NCBI GenBank assembly: GCA_022843465.1
Contig: JALHNO010000006.1
Coordinates: forward strand, 1-64,000
Source: Pseudomonadota bacterium
Lineage (GTDB): Bacteria; Pseudomonadota; Gammaproteobacteria; Xanthomonadales; Ahniellaceae
Length of the DNA stretch: 64,000 bases
Direction of reading: 5' to 3'
A program made the translations under genes and the position numbers. Of this stretch, positions 53,888 to 60,834 are shown in pieces (the first letter of the stretch is position 1; every line of letters begins with the position of its first letter). The notes beneath the pieces are model-generated. The model made no database searches, was not told the origin of the DNA, and was given only the letters and a program-made list of their open reading frames with translations.

Positions 53888-54529
53888 ATGAAGCCAGCCG
53901 ATCGTCTTGCCTTTTTCTCGCGTCTGCGCGAACTCAATCCGCATCCGAAGACCGAACTGGAATACCGGAGTCCGTTCGAACTGCTGATCGCCGTGATGCT
54001 CTCCGCCCAGGCCACCGATGTTTCGGTCAACAAGGCGACCCGCAAATTGTTCGCCCGCGCCAATACCGCGCAGCAGATGCTCGAACTCGGGGAGGAGGGC
54101 ATCAAGCCCTACATCAGCAGTATCGGCCTGTTCAACGCCAAGGCCCGTCACCTGGCCGCCACCTGCGCGATTCTGGTGCGTGCGCATGGTGGCGAGGTTC
54201 CACGTGACCGCGCGGCGCTCGAGTCACTGCCCGGCGTGGGCCGCAAGACGGCCAATGTGGTGCTGAATACGGCGTTTGGCGAGCCCACGATGGCGGTCGA
54301 TACACACATCTTTCGCGTCTCCAATCGCACCGGACTGGCGCCGGGCGCCACCCCGCTGGCGGTCGAGAAGGCCTTGCTCAGGCGCATACCGCGGGAGTTC
54401 CTGCGGGACGCCCATCACTGGCTGATCCTGCACGGGCGCTATGTCTGCAAGGCGCGCACTCCCTTGTGCGGAATCTGCCCGGTACGGCCGTTCTGCGGAT
54501 ACCGCGATAAGTCGAAATCGGCTGACTGA
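53888..54529 (+). CDS. nth: Endonuclease III
   Basis: A 213-residue DNA glycosylase/AP lyase that removes oxidised pyrimidines. The helix-hairpin-helix LPGVGRKTANVV includes the catalytic Lys; the catalytic Asp is in MAVDTHIFRV; the C-terminal iron-sulfur loop has Cys spaced 6-2-5 (CKARTPLCGICPVRPFC). TAGAAT at 53874-53879 lies eight bases before the ATG, so the message may have almost no leader. Confidence 0.96.
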   Translation: MKPADRLAFFSRLRELNPHPKTELEYRSPFELLIAVMLSAQATDVSVNKATRKLFARANTAQQMLELGEEGIKPYISSIGLFNAKARHLAATCAILVRAHGGEVPRDRAALESLPGVGRKTANVVLNTAFGEPTMAVDTHIFRVSNRTGLAPGATPLAVEKALLRRIPREFLRDAHHWLILHGRYVCKARTPLCGICPVRPFCGYRDKSKSAD

Positions 54530-54775
54530 CCAGGGTCCGGACATCGGCATTGGCACTTGCGCAAGGCGTGCAACCGGCGCTGAAAGCTGATTGCAGTTGC
54601 GCCGGTCTCTTGGGGATGCACGCAACCTTTGGCGCTTGCAATTTTCCACAATCGGCCTAAGTTGCTCGCGAACAGCGAGGCGCATTTATTGCGGTGCAGC
54701 ACGATCGAGAATCGTCGCGCAAGCGGCAGCGATGGCGGGCGTTTCCCGTCGACACGATGCATCTGGAGACAACTC

Positions 54776-55186
54776 ATGTCCAAGAAAGTGATCAATCCCC
54801 TGACCCTGACCATTGGCGCTGCGCTCCTTGGTGCCGTCGGCATGGCCAACGCCGGCTCGTTCGCGCTTACCGACCTGGGTACCGGCTACATGCAGACCGG
54901 CGAGAAGGCCACCGAGGGCAAGTGTGGCGAAGGCAAGTGCGGCGAGAAGAAGGCCGACGGCAGCTGTGGCGAGAAGGCCAAGGCTGAGGGCAAGTGCGGT
55001 GAAGGCAAGTGCGGCGAGAAGAAGGCCGACGGCAGCTGCGGCGAGAAGGCCAAGGCCGAAGGCAAGTGCGGTGAAGGCAAGTGCGGCGAGAAGAAAGCCG
55101 ACGGCAGCTGCGGTGAGAAGAAGGCCGACGGCAGCTGCGGTGAGAAGAAAGCCGACGGCAGCTGTGGCGAGAAGAAAGACCACTGA
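54776..55186 (+). CDS. Bufferin/HvfA-type Cys-repeat RiPP precursor
   Basis: A 136-residue precursor of a modified peptide. A signal peptide (about 1-26, ending in MANA) and the family segment [11 protein letters not shown] are followed by a repeat region with 11 Cys. Six are in the motif EGKCG, always in pairs, and five are in DGSCG. In the family, the EGKCG Cys are turned into thiooxazole/oxazolone-type groups by a DUF692 enzyme and bind copper. Here the enzyme, its partner and a DoxX protein follow in one operon. The start at 54776 has GGAG eight bases upstream. Identity as HvfA/BufA2-like is strong; the role of the DGSCG units is unknown. Confidence 0.9.
54914..55171 (+). repeat. In-frame tandem repeats in the bufferin precursor
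   Basis: The region is built of 72-base (24-codon) units [24 protein letters not shown], present twice, followed by one partial unit in which the 27-base EKKADGSCG block is tripled. Copies are nearly identical at DNA level, differing mostly at third positions, so unit number may change by slippage or recombination. Confidence 0.85.
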
Positions 55187-55202
55187 TCGGCCACGATCTG
55201 CG

Positions 55203-56084
55203 ATGAACAGTGGACCACGCCAATTTGTCGTTGAAGGCGCGGGCCTAGGCCTGCGACGGGCCCTGATGGGCCCGTTGCGGGACGCCGGCGCGGGCAGCTT
55301 CGATTTTCTCGAGCTGGTTCCCGAGAACTGGATCAATGTCGGTGGCAGGCTCGGTCGCCAGCTGCGCGCCTATACCGAGCGCTTTCCGTTCGTCTCGCAT
55401 GGCTTGTCGCTGTCGATCGGGGCGCCGTCTCCGCTTGATGAGACCTTCCTGATCAAGCTGAAGCGTTTTCTCGACGAGCACCAGATCCGTGCCTACAGCG
55501 AACATCTCTCCTACTGTTCGGATGATGGCCATCTCTACGACCTGATGCCGATCCCCTTTACCGAAGCGGCCGTGCGCCATGTCGCCGCGCGAATCCGTCG
55601 CGTGCAGGATGTGCTCGGCCGCCGCATTGCCATGGAAAACGTCTCGTTCTACACCATGGTCGGTGCCGAGATGAGCGAGCTCGAATTCATTCGTGCGGTG
55701 TTGCTGCAGGCCGACTGCGATCTCCTGCTCGATCTCAACAACATCTACGTCAACAGCGTCAACCATCGCTACGATCCGGTCGCGTTCCTGCGTGGATTGC
55801 CGCTCGAGCGTGTCGCCTACTGTCATATTGCCGGGCACTACAATGAGGCCAGTGATCTCATCGTGGACACTCATGCGGCCGACGTGATTCCACCCGTCTG
55901 GTCGCTGCTGGAAACCGCCTACAGCGAATTTGGCGTGATGCCGACCCTGCTTGAGCGCGATTTCAATATCCCACCGGTGCCTGAATTGCTGGCCGAGGTC
56001 GACCAGATCCGCCAGCGTCAGCAGCGCACACTGCAGACAAGGCCGCTCGCTCAGGCCGGAGAATCCGCACGTGTCCGCGCTTGA
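55203..56084 (+). CDS. MNIO maturase (DUF692; HvfB/BufB)
   Basis: A 293-residue DUF692 multinuclear non-heme iron oxidase, TIM-barrel type. Conserved metal and core segments are visible: GAGLGLR at the start, [45 protein letters not shown] and DTHAADV. It should modify the Cys residues of the upstream precursor by four-electron oxidation. It starts 16 bases after the precursor stop, and its 3' end overlaps the next gene by 14 bases. Confidence 0.93.
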
Positions 56085-56841
56085 GTCTGCGTTGGATTTC
56101 AAGGAGCTCCAGTACCGCTTCGCGGCGCATCTGCGCGATCCCGAAGCCCATCCCGGCCTGCCCGGGATTGAAGATCGGCGTCTGAAAATCTACCGTGACC
56201 TCTTCTTCAACAACATCGAGAATATTCTCGCCACCGGATTCCCGGTGATCAGGCGATTGCTCGGTCGATCTGACTGGTTGCATCTGGTGCGCCGGTTCTA
56301 TGCCGAACACGAATCGCACACGCCGTTGTTCTCCGAGATCGGTCGCGAGTTCCAGCGTTATCTGCAGGCCCGTGCCGAGCGCGGCTGCGAAGACCCAGTC
56401 TTCCTGGTCGAACTGGCGCACTATGAGTGGGTCGAGTTGGCGTTGTCGCTCGATGAACACGAGATCGACGCCATGGATCTCGATCCGGCGGGCGATCTGT
56501 TGGCAGGGGCTCCGGTCGTGTCTCCGCTGGCTTGGCTGCTCGAATATCGCTTTCCGGTGCAGCGAATCAGCGTCGACTATCAGCCGACGCTTGCGCCGGA
56601 GTTGCCCACCTGCCTGGTGGTCTCCCGCAATCGCCGTGACGAAATCGTGTTCACCGAACTCAATCCGCTGTCGTTCAAATTGCTCGAGGTATTGAAAGCC
56701 AATCCTGGAGTGACCGGTCTTGATGTCATCGAGGCGCTGATCGGGGCGCTGGGACCAAGCGATGCCGCGGCCATGAAAAACGGCGCTGCAGAGATGCTGG
56801 AGCGCTTCCGCGAGCGCGACATCATTCTTGGCACCCAGTGA
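56071..56841 (+). CDS. DUF2063 partner protein (HvfC/BufC)
   Basis: A 256-residue DUF2063 protein, the usual partner of the DUF692 enzyme. The N-terminal domain (about 8-100) has [28 protein letters not shown] and [10 protein letters not shown]; the C-terminal domain resembles a winged or precursor-recognition fold ([18 protein letters not shown]). In related systems it binds precursor and delivers it to the enzyme. The start is GTG 56071, with GGAG nine bases upstream, overlapping the DUF692 gene by 14 bases. Confidence 0.88.
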
Positions 56842-56893
56842 ATCGACCCGCGGTGCCGTCGTCCCAACTGCAACCAGGCTACGGAGTCAGTCG

Positions 56894-57562
56894 ATGAGCA
56901 AGCTTTCCCTGGCGGGTGCTGTCAATGCATGGCAGCAGATCGTGTCGCGTCTCGAAGGCGCCGGGCAATACATCCCTCTGCTGGTCATGCGGGTGGTGAT
57001 GGGCTGGGAGTTTTTCGAGGCGGGTCGCGAAAAACTGCATGGCAGCAACTGGTTCGGCGGCATCCAGGAGCAGTTCCCGTTTCCCTTCGACGTCGTGCCC
57101 GCTGCGTTGAGTTGGCAGCTGGCGACCTGGTTCGAGCTGGTCGGTGCGGTCTGCCTGTGGCTGGGCCTGGCAACACGATTCTGGGCGTTCAACCTGCTGT
57201 TTCTGACCTTTGTCGCGACCGCGGCCGTGCATTGGCCAGACATGTGGTCGATGTGGTCGGATCTGCTGAAGGGTTACGCGATTTCCGATGATGGCCATGG
57301 CAACTTCAAGCTTCCGTTGCTGTTCGTTGTCATGTTGCTGCCCCTGGTATTCATGGGCCCGGGAAAACTGAGTCTGGACCGGCTGATCGCGCACTGGTTC
57401 ATGGAGGATGGCGAGCAACGTCCGCATGCCGATCTCTACGCCTGGGCACTCGCGGCCGCGCTGCTGGGACTGCCGTTCGTGATGCTGATGCCCGTCTTCG
57501 GTGCCGGTCTGCTGGTGTTGGCAGCGGTGCTGGCAGGCTTTGGTCGATTTGCCCGCGCCTGA
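56894..57562 (+). CDS. DoxX-family membrane protein (HvfX-like)
   Basis: A 222-residue protein with about five membrane helices. DoxX features include the first helix RVVMGWEFFEAGREKLHG and the WFELVGAVCLWLGLATRF helix. DoxX members close HvfABC-type operons and are thought to bind copper or act in redox reactions at the membrane. His, Asp and Met residues lie in VHWPDMWSMWSDLL. GGAG is seven bases before the ATG. The last helices are predicted on the C-terminal side. Confidence 0.85.
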   Translation: MSKLSLAGAVNAWQQIVSRLEGAGQYIPLLVMRVVMGWEFFEAGREKLHGSNWFGGIQEQFPFPFDVVPAALSWQLATWFELVGAVCLWLGLATRFWAFNLLFLTFVATAAVHWPDMWSMWSDLLKGYAISDDGHGNFKLPLLFVVMLLPLVFMGPGKLSLDRLIAHWFMEDGEQRPHADLYAWALAAALLGLPFVMLMPVFGAGLLVLAAVLAGFGRFARA

Positions 57563-58367: not shown

Positions 58368-59561
58368 TCAGGCCTCGTAGGCGATCGCGTCGTCCCGCGG
58401 CGGCGGTGGCGCTGCTGGCGCTGCCGGTGCTGCCGGTGCTGCTGGCGGTGCTGGCGGTGCTGGAGCCGCTGCCGACGGCGGTCGTGGCGCCTTCGGTGCC
58501 GCTGGCGGCGAAGGCGGCGCAGGCGGCGTCATGAACATGAAGTGATCGCGCTCCGGTACGATCACGGTCAGCACCTGAGCCTTGCGGTCGCGCCATACTT
58601 CGACGGCCATCGCCGCGCCGGGTTGCTTGCTGCCAAAGGCACGCATCACGCTTGAAACCGAATCGGCCGGCTTGCCGTCGACGATCTGGATCACATCGCC
58701 GGGCTTGAGCTCCTTCAGCGTCTTTTCGCTGCTGTCGATGACCAGCACGCCGCGGTCGGTGCCGAAATAGCGCCCGAGCTCGGGGTTCAATTTGCTCAGG
58801 TTCAGCGACGCCCACGGCGCGCCACCGCTGCGCACGCGGTGCACGATGTGATCGGCGCTGCCGCTGCTGTGTTCGCCGTCCTCACTGTGAAACTCGAACA
58901 CGTGCGCGCCAGGCGCCATCGGCGCGCCCATCTCACGGCGCTTGCCGTTGACGATGACCTCGATCTCCTCGCCATCAGGCCCCGATCGGCGCTTGACTAT
59001 GGGTGCGTGGCCGCCGCTGAATTCGGGCATGCTGTCGAGCATCCCGGCCCAGTCCCAGCTCTCGCGACGCTCGGCCTTCAACTCGAACGCCTGCGTCTTG
59101 CCATCACGCAATACATTGAGCTTCACGGGCTCGCCCTCTTCGAGATTGCGCAGCAGTTCGCGCGCAACGTCGACGCCGGCCTGACCGCCCTTGGCCTGGA
59201 CCAGCGACTTGCCATTGACCGAGGTCAACAGATCGCCAGCGCGGACGCCGGCCTTCGCGGCGGGACCGCCGGGTGTGACCGCGCCGATCCGCACGCCGTT
59301 GTCGTCGGGCACCATGACGATGCCCACCATGGCGCGCCTGGGTTCATGCAGATAGCGGAAGGCGAATGCCTGCGGACCACCTTCACCAAGTTTGGCCGAC
59401 AGTTCGGCAATACGGCGGCTGGCATCGCGCAGCTGATCGCGCGCTACCTCCAGGTCGGCGCGCGCCTTCGCCATGTCGTCGGTCGTCGCCGGGTCTGCGG
59501 CGTAACTGATCGGCAGCGCCAGCATCAGGGCGACTGCAAGAAGTGAGATTCGAAGTTTCAT
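58368..59561 (-). CDS. Exported double-PDZ protein
   Basis: A 397-residue periplasmic protein. A signal peptide ends near YAA (residue 21). A short coiled coil (30-55) leads to PDZ 1 (about 65-165, with GIVMVPDDNGVRIGAVTPGG and VRAGDLLTSVNGK) and PDZ 2 (about 265-345, with LKPGDVIQIVDGKP). A Pro/Ala-rich tail (350-397) follows. There is no protease domain. It is third in an operon with the ECF sigma factor and its likely anti-sigma factor, and may sense or scaffold envelope proteins. GAGG lies five bases upstream of the ATG. Confidence 0.82.
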   Translation of the reverse strand: MKLRISLLAVALMLALPISYAADPATTDDMAKARADLEVARDQLRDASRRIAELSAKLGEGGPQAFAFRYLHEPRRAMVGIVMVPDDNGVRIGAVTPGGPAAKAGVRAGDLLTSVNGKSLVQAKGGQAGVDVARELLRNLEEGEPVKLNVLRDGKTQAFELKAERRESWDWAGMLDSMPEFSGGHAPIVKRRSGPDGEEIEVIVNGKRREMGAPMAPGAHVFEFHSEDGEHSSGSADHIVHRVRSGGAPWASLNLSKLNPELGRYFGTDRGVLVIDSSEKTLKELKPGDVIQIVDGKPADSVSSVMRAFGSKQPGAAMAVEVWRDRKAQVLTVIVPERDHFMFMTPPAPPSPPAAPKAPRPPSAAAPAPPAPPAAPAAPAAPAAPPPPRDDAIAYEA

Positions 59562-59591
59562 GAGGTCCTCGTCGGTTTGCGCTCGATGCGC

Positions 59592-60173
59592 TCAGTTGAT
59601 CGGGTAGGTGGCGCTCAGCAGTGTCGGGCTCTGGTCGGGGAACGCCTTGTCCCAGGCCGGTTGTGTGCGTACCTCGGCCAGTCTGCTCATCAGTCGGATG
59701 CGGCGTTCCCACAGCGATTGCGCCTGCTCGTCGTTTTCGGTAGCGCCGAGCTGCAGATCGGTCAGGCTGATCAGGTCTTCCAGTTCGGCACTGGCCATGG
59801 CGGTTCCGGCGTCCATCGGCATGCTCTGCTGTTCCAGTCGACGCAGCGCGGTCTCCCATTCGAGAGAGCGCTGCATCAAGGCCTGCAAGTCAGCAGAGGC
59901 GCCGACGTCCGCTGCGGTCGTGCGCTCCGCATCGATTGCCTGGCCGTTGAACAGGAACAGTCCCAGGCCGATCACCACCAGCCCGGCGGCCCAGGCCATC
60001 CAGCCAGGCAAGTGTCGATGAGTTCGCGCGGTCCGCTTGCCACTCAGTGCCAACACGGCTGGCAGTGCGCTCCTGGCTGGCGACAACAGGGGCAGGGCGC
60101 GCAGCGCCTCGGCCAGCCTGCGGTCGTCGGGTTCGCCTGTCAGTACACTGATTCGATCGATTTCATCCGGCAT
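59592..60173 (-). CDS. Single-pass membrane protein, likely anti-sigma factor
   Basis: A 193-residue protein with one membrane helix (about 58-78, WAAGLVVIGLGLFLF) between a short cytoplasmic N-terminus and a periplasmic helical domain. It is encoded directly after the ECF sigma gene, which it overlaps by 11 bases, so it is probably that factor's membrane inhibitor, although the N-terminal zinc motif of ZAS-type anti-sigma factors is absent. AGGAGG eight bases before ATG 60173 fixes the start; an ATG seven codons earlier lacks a ribosome site. Confidence 0.65.
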   Translation of the reverse strand: MPDEIDRISVLTGEPDDRRLAEALRALPLLSPARSALPAVLALSGKRTARTHRHLPGWMAWAAGLVVIGLGLFLFNGQAIDAERTTAADVGASADLQALMQRSLEWETALRRLEQQSMPMDAGTAMASAELEDLISLTDLQLGATENDEQAQSLWERRIRLMSRLAEVRTQPAWDKAFPDQSPTLLSATYPIN

Positions 60174-60723
60174 ATGCCAGTCCTCCTTCTGCAACAGTCA
60201 GCAGTCCGCGCAGGCGTTGCGTGCCGCGCGACAGCTGGGATTTGGAGAAGCTCACGCTCTTGTCGAACAGCGCGGCAATCTCGTCGTGCGAATAGCCTTC
60301 GACGTGGTACAGCCACACCACGCTGCGGGTGACGGTCGGCAATCTGCGTAGCGCAGCTTCCAGATCACGACTGTCGAATCCCGACTGCTCATCGGCCGCC
60401 GGTGCCGGTTCGGGGACCTCATCGGTGAACTCGATCAGCTTGCGCTTGCGCAGCCGCATCAGGGCTTCATTGACGGCGATCTGGCGCAACCAGCCCCAGA
60501 ATGGAGCGTCACCGCGAAACTGGTCGAGTTTGCCGAACAGGGTGAGCATCGCGTCATGCAGGATTTCCTGCGCCTCATCGGCATCATTGAGCATGCGCCA
60601 GGCCAGGCTGTATACCGGTCGCTCGAACAGGCGGTAGATCTGCTCGAAGGCGCGCGCTTCACCGCGTCTGGCTCGATCCAGAAGCGAAGCCGGTACCTCG
60701 ATGGCGAAGGAAGATGTGCTCAC
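60163..60723 (-). CDS. ECF-type RNA polymerase sigma factor
   Basis: A 186-residue ECF sigma factor. Region 2 (about 22-90) has RRGEARAFEQIYRLF, the DEAQEILHDAML core-binding helix and FWGWLRQIAVNEAL; region 4 (about 125-180) has LPTVTRSVVWLYHVEGYSHDEIAA and the DNA-binding SKSQLSRGTQRLR. The start is GTG 60723, giving a standard N-terminus; the longer frame runs through the terminator of the porin gene. It heads the operon with the anti-sigma-like and PDZ proteins. Confidence 0.9.
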   Translation of the reverse strand: MSTSSFAIEVPASLLDRARRGEARAFEQIYRLFERPVYSLAWRMLNDADEAQEILHDAMLTLFGKLDQFRGDAPFWGWLRQIAVNEALMRLRKRKLIEFTDEVPEPAPAADEQSGFDSRDLEAALRRLPTVTRSVVWLYHVEGYSHDEIAALFDKSVSFSKSQLSRGTQRLRGLLTVAEGGLAYAG

Positions 60724-60780
60724 GGTGTACAGGATGCGCGGCGTTGGCCAAAGGTCGCAGCGATCGCGGCGGTGGGCAAC

Positions 60781-60814
60781 AAAAAAAGGCCGCGGACGAA
60801 TCCGCGGCCCTTTT
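60781..60814 (-). terminator. Strong intrinsic terminator of the TorF-type porin gene
   Basis: GGCCGCGGA (60788-60796) and TCCGCGGCC (60801-60809) form a perfect 9-bp stem with the loop CGAA. Seven A residues (60781-60787) become the U-tract for the minus-strand transcript, and TTTT on the other side could serve plus-strand reads. It lies 21 bases after the porin stop codon. Confidence 0.9.
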
Positions 60815-60834
60815 GGGCAAGCGCAGAACCGCAA

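What the first reader, a model, noticed from the sequence alone, without database searches (positions are those of the whole stretch)
54776..57562. Compact bufferin-type RiPP operon with a mixed EGKCG/DGSCG precursor
Seen: a signal-peptide precursor with 11 Cys, a DUF692 (MNIO) enzyme, a DUF2063 partner and a DoxX protein, in order and with overlaps or short gaps. Known: related HvfABC/Buf systems turn EGKCG Cys into thiooxazole-type copper ligands. Unusual: five of the Cys lie in DGSCG, spaced regularly between pairs of EGKCG. Inference: the enzyme may treat the two contexts differently, giving modified ligands alternating with free thiols, or both may be modified, giving a denser ligand array. 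No ECF sigma factor sits inside the operon.
Basis: partly seen in the sequence, partly recalled or inferred. Interest (0 to 1): 0.85.

Follow-up and report, generated by a model that had tools for sequence, protein, structure and literature searches.

The report
Copper-binding thiooxazole peptide operon

Summary
The operon is real: precursor 54776-55186, MNIO (DUF692) 55203-56084, DUF2063 partner 56071-56841, DoxX 56894-57562. NCBIfam places it with HvfA/B/C/X (oxazolin, "captophorin" Lys-Cys group), not bufferins 1 or 2. The 11 Cys (6 EGKCG, 5 DGSCG) are confirmed. The layout is KK-S-KK-S-KK-S-S-S, so only two DGSCG units lie between pairs.

The mixture is not unusual. Among 241 distinct precursors beside HvfB-type MNIOs, 120 have a non-Lys unit, 68 have GSCG, and 25 show no Lys unit. 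DGSCG itself is rare (4 of 241). Three lines favour modification of the DGSCG Cys. First, all-Ser/Ala precursors exist beside enzymes with the same specificity residues. Second, Ser units keep the E/D-G-x-C-G frame. Third, published assays show the related FonBC accepts Asp at position 1 and Ala/Thr at position 3 (Ser is not reported in the text read). I favour a dense array of up to 11 thiooxazole copper ligands (0.75).

One regularity came out: in mixed precursors Lys units stand in tandem runs and non-Lys units stand alone (65 precursors against 6; 33 against 3 clusters at 70% identity). It is unexplained, and leaves room for a two-tier array.

The parts
54776..55186 (+). hvfA-like precursor, 136 aa, signal peptide-like N-terminus, leader motif DLGTGYM, then 6 EGKCG and 5 DGSCG units
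   Evidence: NCBIfam NF050137 KCGExKCG_twice 50.4 bits against cut-off 19.5
54914..55168 (+). Cys-unit array, layout K-K S K-K S K-K S S S (Lys units in tandem pairs, Ser units alone)
   Evidence: tandem repeat of 72 nt and 27 nt periods
55203..56084 (+). hvfB-like MNIO (DUF692) maturase, 293 aa, with the selectivity residues R18, R19, D253, F254
   Evidence: PF05114 340 bits; NF003818 HvfB 429.4 against cut-off 360; residues
56071..56841 (+). hvfC-like DUF2063 partner protein (PME1 type), 256 aa, overlaps hvfB by 14 nt
   Evidence: PF09836 and PF22106; NF050145 294.9 against cut-off 142; PDB 3DEE relative
56894..57562 (+). hvfX-like DoxX protein, 222 aa
   Evidence: PF07681; NF050144 131.9 against cut-off 80

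Best explanation
This is an hvfABCX operon of the oxazolin/captophorin (Lys-Cys) type. The precursor is bound through its leader by the DUF2063 partner and handed to the iron-dependent MNIO. The MNIO converts the Cys of each E/D-G-x-C-G unit into a 5-thiooxazole (loss of 4 H per Cys). The modified peptide is exported by its signal peptide and binds Cu(I) through the thiooxazole sulfurs in the cell envelope, buffering excess copper; DoxX helps in an unknown way. I expect the DGSCG units to be modified like the EGKCG units, giving up to 11 ligands. DGSCG is EGSCG with Asp for Glu, multiplied by tandem duplication. Shown here: gene content, family membership, repeat layout, conservation. Inferred: thiooxazole chemistry, copper binding, export, and modification of DGSCG.
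For: MNIO, partner and DoxX proteins pass their curated NCBIfam cut-offs; the precursor passes the domain model NF050137 but not the equivalog NF050188. The genes hvfABC and hvfX are found together in the window's family. hvfC lies downstream of hvfB in 75 of 75 named loci with enough sequence, and a DoxX relative in 55 of 75. Of 241 distinct precursors 25 show only non-Lys units (202 units: 101 Ser, 82 Ala, 19 other), so Ser and Ala units are the likely substrates there, beside enzymes with the same R, R, D, F residues (25 of 25 at each site). The frame E/D-G-x-C-G is intact in 249 of 262 Ser units and 1309 of 1346 Lys units. Units of the form [ED]G-x-x-G that have lost the Cys are rare with Ser (2 against 249) and Lys (7 against 1309) before it. 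Published: FonBC fully modified DGKCG, tolerated A, R and T at position 3 in both repeats, and was blocked by the changes of the Gly after Cys other than Ala; of other natural motifs NVCGG and LVHCY were modified once (PMC13097082, section 6 parts 1-3 of 4 read). Oxazolin, fontiphorin and gonophorin all carry 5-thiooxazole (same source). The single same-genus relative has AEGSCG in its precursor fragment.
Against: No measurement on this operon. FonBC did not modify a one-repeat peptide, and the DGSCG units stand alone, so lone units might be poor substrates. In mixed precursors non-Lys units are strongly confined to lone positions, which suggests that Lys and non-Lys units are not fully equivalent. 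The text read does not report Ser at position 3 or Asp and Ser together. No precursor made only of lone Ser units was seen. LVHCY, with Tyr after Cys, was still modified once by FonBC, so the kept Gly is not a strict proof of processing.
Confidence: 0.75

Rival explanations
1. Two-tier array: the tandem EGKCG pairs become thiooxazoles, while the lone DGSCG Cys stay free thiols (or are modified late and incompletely), giving mixed ligands on one chain.
For: In 94 mixed precursors, non-Lys residues make up 166 of 225 lone units but 92 of 478 units in tandem runs; 65 precursors show it, 6 the reverse, 2 neither, 21 cannot be judged; 33 clusters against 3 at 70% MNIO identity. FonBC left a one-repeat peptide unmodified.
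Against: Ser units in mixed precursors keep the full frame, with the Gly after Cys that FonBC mostly needs, in 148 of 161 cases. Precursors without any Lys unit exist, some with lone Ser units among runs. Lone Lys units are common: 154 in all-Lys precursors.
Confidence: 0.17
2. The Ser units are decaying copies without a function of their own.
For: They are near-identical tandem copies, and DGSCG exactly is rare (4 of 241 precursors).
Against: Cys and frame are about as conserved in Ser units as in Lys units, across 71 precursors with Ser units, and GSCG presence changes at least 33 times on the MNIO tree.
Confidence: 0.05
3. A bufferin 1 or 2 type cluster (DUF2282 or 6/12-Cys precursor).
For: Same kinds of neighbouring genes (MNIO, DUF2063, DoxX; PMC12452194 passages).
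Against: No DUF2282 match; MNIO under the BufB cut-off and over the HvfB one.
Confidence: 0.02

Closest known systems
HvfABC(X) / oxazolin of Haemophilus influenzae
   Same: MNIO, partner and DoxX proteins pass the NCBIfam Hvf models and the precursor the HvfA-family repeat model; tandem EGKCG units
   Different: Five of 11 units are DGSCG; precursor scores below the HvfA equivalog cut-off (24.8 against 95 bits)
Fontiphorin (FonABC, Fontimonas thermophila), captophorin Lys-Cys group (PMC13097082)
   Same: MNIO plus PME1 partner, EGKCG units, residues that correspond by motif to FonB R15, R16, D249, F250 all present
   Different: DoxX gene present here; Ser-containing lone units; FonA's full sequence was not seen
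Buf_EGKCG/oxazolin family of PMC12452194
   Same: EGKCG repeats, signal peptide, MNIO, DUF2063, DoxX (passages)
   Different: [quoted passage not shown] here the module is 24 residues with two EGKCG and one DGSCG, then 9-residue DGSCG copies
MmrABC of Microbulbifer (PMC12538549)
   Same: Cassettes of paired Cys in EGKCG units; Cys40 and Cys45 of cassette 1 modified (passages seen)
   Different: No DGSCG units mentioned in the passages seen
Lysobacterales and other gammaproteobacterial precursors with K pairs and lone S units (e.g. L138, L050, L097)
   Same: Same layout rule, e.g. L138 K-K S S K-K S K-K
   Different: Position 1 is mostly Glu (EGSCG); DGSCG elsewhere only once each in L050, L051 and L215

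Membership tests
HvfABCX / captophorin Lys-Cys group | MNIO over the HvfB family cut-off | tested here: met
   429.4 against 360 bits
HvfABCX / captophorin Lys-Cys group | PME1/DUF2063 partner HvfC next to the MNIO | tested here: met
   294.9 against 142 bits, 14 nt overlap
HvfABCX / captophorin Lys-Cys group | Precursor with signal peptide and repeated EGKCG | tested here: met
   NF050137 50.4 against 19.5 bits; signal peptide judged by eye only
HvfA equivalog (NF050188) | Precursor over the equivalog cut-off | tested here: not met
   24.8 against 95 bits; so it is not filed as HvfA itself, but as a member of the wider KCGExKCG family
HvfABCX / captophorin Lys-Cys group | Arg-Arg and Asp-Phe selectivity/catalytic residues (FonB R15, R16, D249, F250) | tested here: met
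   R18, R19, D253, F254; equivalence by motif and spacing, FonB itself not aligned
HvfABCX / captophorin Lys-Cys group | 5-thiooxazole on Cys, copper binding | not testable with these tools
   needs mass spectrometry, NMR and copper titration
Bufferin 1 | DUF2282 precursor | tested here: not met
   no match
Bufferin 1 or 2 | MNIO over the BufB cut-off (NF050167) | tested here: not met
   261 against 310 bits
Methanobactin | MbnB-type MNIO | tested here: not met
   40.8 against 325 bits
[quoted passage not shown]
   24-residue modules with two EGKCG plus DGSCG, then 9-residue copies

The most novel reading that the evidence does not exclude
The residue before Cys and the tandem pairing together write a modification code. 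Lys-containing tandem pairs are anchors that the MNIO converts fully, and lone Ser units are converted slowly or left as thiols, so one peptide carries two kinds of copper ligand in a genetically fixed order. The layout is widespread among HvfA-type precursors.
Probability: 0.17. Interest if true: 0.6.

Novelty: new member of a known kind. Interest (0 to 1): 0.3.

Why it matters
The operon itself adds one more captophorin cluster. The useful by-product is a comparative one. Natural precursors made only of Ser, Ala or other non-Lys units suggest that Lys before the modified Cys is dispensable in this family, and the pairing rule (Lys units in tandem runs, non-Lys units alone) gives a simple test of how the enzyme reads its substrate. 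I did not find either point in print. In one search the letters EGSCG occur in no MNIO paper among the 20 of 21 listed, and EGACG, among MNIO papers, only in the fontiphorin preprint, as part of a made substrate. I saw passages, abstracts and sections. Supplementary tables and figures, which may chart such motifs, were not available, and subscription papers are not held.

Tried and rejected
Bufferin 1/2 and methanobactin membership: rejected by profile scores. A difference in MNIO specificity residues between all-Lys, mixed and no-Lys groups: none at the four sites beyond single rows, and no column separates no-Lys from all-Lys enzymes under the thresholds used. Local charge as the cause of the pairing rule: little difference around lone Lys and lone non-Lys units (mean 0.61 against 0.56). 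A folded structure of the precursor: AlphaFold on the single sequence gave mean pLDDT 52 and pTM 0.24, so nothing can be read from it. Promoter scan: no sigma-70-like site, 0.6 expected in shuffles, not informative. ECF sigma factor as part of the cluster: the window's downstream ECF gene has only 32-34% identical matches in two of the six family loci looked at, so a link is not shown.

First extraction of precursors failed to find the MNIO start motif in 62 of 294 loci and left 44 without a precursor; it was replaced (13 without). Searches were translations in a wrong frame and one search was repeated; searches are the ones used.

Rows dropped before counting: 3 of 297 loci gave no MNIO ORF (L008, L013, L119). 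Of the other 294, 13 had no precursor with two or more units: 7 start at or close to a contig end, L063 has masked bases, L106 shows two Cys units of which one met the script's rule, L118 is a more distant MNIO, and L066, L100 and L172 had none found. 40 of 281 were duplicates by MNIO sequence, leaving 241. Some of the 241 precursors are cut by contig ends (e.g. L060, L071, L115, L149). Of the 241, 28 came by the HvfA repeat model itself, which favours Lys pairs, 73 from the named loci, 139 from the HvfB searches, and 1 is the window. The match lists were capped. The pairing count used units with G or A at position 2 and G, A or S at position 5, which makes 119 rather than 120 precursors with a non-Lys unit (94 mixed and 25 without Lys).

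Full report
WHAT IS THERE. Four genes run in one direction: a 136-aa precursor (54776-55186), an MNIO/DUF692 enzyme (55203-56084), a DUF2063 protein starting at GTG 56071 (to 56841), and a DoxX protein (56894-57562). The precursor begins with a signal peptide-like stretch (judged by eye), continues with a leader that holds DLGTGYM, and then carries 11 Cys, all in five-residue units: six EGKCG and five DGSCG. A leader motif of this kind ([DEQN][LM], one or two residues, [GA][YF]) is found in 168 of 226 related precursors long enough to judge. The order of units is K-K S K-K S K-K S S S. So two DGSCG units lie between EGKCG pairs, one after the last pair, and two more follow in tandem. The DNA shows tandem duplication: 72-nt and 27-nt periods at 90-92% matches. 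The window's genome has one place that matches the MNIO family and one that matches the HvfA repeat model.

FAMILY. NCBIfam assigns the MNIO to HvfB (429 bits, cut-off 360), the partner to HvfC (295, cut-off 142), the DoxX protein to the HvfX family (132, cut-off 80), and the precursor to the KCGExKCG repeat family called HvfA family (50.4, cut-off 19.5); it does not reach the HvfA equivalog cut-off (24.8 against 95). BufB is not reached (261, cut-off 310), and no DUF2282 match is present. Relatives with solved structures are 3BWW for the MNIO and 3DEE for the partner. PMC13097082 (abstract, and section 6 parts 1-3 of 4, read) treats exactly this group, showing 5-thiooxazole on fontiphorin, oxazolin and gonophorin, and copper binding by fontiphorin and gonophorin; it proposes the name captophorins. 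PMC13419390 (abstract and outline) gives six thiooxazoles on oxazolin. The absence of a sigma factor in the operon is no surprise: PMC12452194 reports sigma factor genes in Buf1 but not Buf2 clusters and the core genes in various combinations for most EGKCG clusters (passages).

IS THE MIXTURE UNUSUAL? I collected loci mainly by the MNIO, not by the precursor motif: 80 named loci nearest to the window's enzyme, and HvfB-family loci from the window's family, order and phylum (with regions). Thirty loci came by the repeat model, which favours Lys pairs. Of 297 loci, 294 gave an MNIO ORF; 281 had a precursor with at least two units; 241 remained after removing duplicates. They hold 1809 Cys units: 1293 EGKCG, 241 EGSCG, 102 EGACG, 16 DGKCG, 8 DGSCG and others. 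At least one non-Lys unit is present in 120 of 241, a GSCG unit in 68, and DGSCG in 4 (the window, L050, L051, L215). Five of the eight DGSCG units are the window's. In the 73 named precursors alone the figures are lower: 21 with a non-Lys unit and 12 with GSCG. Twenty-five precursors show no Lys unit; their 202 units are 101 Ser, 82 Ala and 19 other, L096 has EGECG and EGSCG, and L149 is cut at its start. Twenty-four of the 25 come from the HvfB searches (with 30-35) and one from the named loci. The single same-genus relative has AEGSCG in the fragment at its contig end. So DGSCG is best read as a local Glu-to-Asp version of a common Ser unit. The sample is mostly gammaproteobacterial and rich in the window's order, so these are not frequencies for the whole family. 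The window's order is Lysobacterales/Xanthomonadales, judged from contigs of equal length between named records and unnamed 'same order' genomes, e.g. 76,492 and 70,719 bases.

ARE THE SER UNITS SUBSTRATES? Four observations favour it. (1) No-Lys precursors sit beside HvfB enzymes; without modification of Ser or Ala units these clusters would have no substrate. (2) The residues that PMC13097082 ties to selectivity and catalysis are the same in all groups: among 240 relatives counted, D253 in 240, F254 in 239, R19 in 239 and R18 in 235, and the 25 no-Lys enzymes have all four. (3) Ser units keep the frame E/D-G-x-C-G in 249 of 262 cases, against 1309 of 1346 for Lys units; 12 of the 13 Ser exceptions are EGSCS, in three precursors. 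Of the double variants tested at the position after Cys, FonBC accepted only Ala besides the native Gly, although the natural motif LVHCY was modified once; so the kept Gly speaks for processing without proving it. (4) FonBC fully modified DGKCG and tolerated A, R and T at position 3 but hardly F or E, and NVCGG was modified once. Ser is between Ala and Thr in size; it is not named in the text I read.

A REGULARITY. In the 94 precursors that mix Lys and non-Lys units, units in tandem runs (Cys five residues apart) are Lys in 386 of 478 cases, and lone units are Lys in 59 of 225. With labels shuffled inside each precursor, 0 of 5000 shuffles reached the observed count. Counting each precursor once, 65 go one way, 6 the other, and 2 are even; the remaining 21 of 94 cannot be judged. 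Counting one vote per MNIO cluster, it is 33 against 3 at 70% identity and 19 against 2 at 65%, so close relatedness does not explain it. In no-Lys precursors Ser and Ala do occur in runs (62 runs of two or more against 16 lone units), so Ser is not forbidden in pairs. All but 2 of 241 precursors have at least one tandem run. FonBC modified a two-repeat but not a one-repeat peptide, and reduction by TCEP of the two-Cys MmrA product was taken to show a disulfide (passages of PMC12538549). A plausible reading is that tandem pairs are the main docking and copper-binding elements and that lone units are more freely variable.

HISTORY. On a FastTree of the 241 MNIOs the presence of GSCG needs at least 33 changes and the no-Lys state at least 6, of which starred branches force 4. 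Ser units are therefore gained and lost often. The support in this tree is moderate (80 of 238 inner branches starred).

SURROUNDINGS. Endonuclease III (nth) lies just upstream (53888-54529). An nth relative lies upstream, though not always next to the precursor gene, in 42 of 68 named loci with at least 1500 nt upstream of the MNIO and in 3 of 6 family loci; of the other three, two begin at a contig end and L300 has about 3 kb upstream without it. Downstream on the other strand are a PDZ protein, a small unassigned protein and an ECF sigma factor (58368-60834). ECF-like genes (25-61 bits, one place counted twice) were found in 10 loci, in three of them between nth and hvfA (L082, L083, L105).

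VERDICT. A real and complete operon of a known kind. The mixed precursor is a common variation. The most likely product is a copper-binding peptide with up to 11 thiooxazoles. The chemistry is inferred from relatives and not shown here.

Noticed in passing
53888-54529: Endonuclease III gene just upstream of hvfA; an nth relative lies upstream in 42 of 68 named loci with at least 1500 nt upstream of the MNIO. Either old synteny or a functional link.
   Followed up: partly
58368-60834: On the - strand: PDZ-domain protein, small unassigned protein, ECF sigma factor, starting about 0.8 kb after hvfX, the sigma gene 2.6 kb after it. Matches to that sigma factor (32-34% identical) lie downstream of hvfX in L299 and L303.
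   Followed up: partly
L082 1092-1749, L083 1182-1806, L105 1010-1811: ECF-like sigma factor frame between nth and hvfA in three loci, unlike the window.
   Followed up: no
L137, L139, L186, L189, L190, L192, L194, L198 and others: HvfA-type precursors with only EGSCG, EGACG and similar units and very acidic linkers; 25 of 241 show no Lys unit.
   Followed up: partly
L096: Precursor with EGECG units, although Glu at position 3 was poorly processed by FonBC; its MNIO has the usual R, R, D, F.
   Followed up: no
L041, L215 and L230: EGSCS units (Ser after Cys; 7, 2 and 3 units), a position where FonBC accepted only Gly or Ala among the double variants.
   Followed up: no
L093, L193, L220, L222, L277: EF-hand-like stretches (DTDKDG and the like) between EGKCG units or after them within the precursor; judged by eye. 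PMC12452194 describes C-terminal EF-hand fusions.
   Followed up: no
L066, L100, L172: MNIO with upstream sequence held but no precursor found by the script; they may have unusual or distant precursors.
   Followed up: no
54686-55336 (-): A 216-aa open frame antisense to the repeat array; most likely an artefact of the repeats.
   Followed up: no
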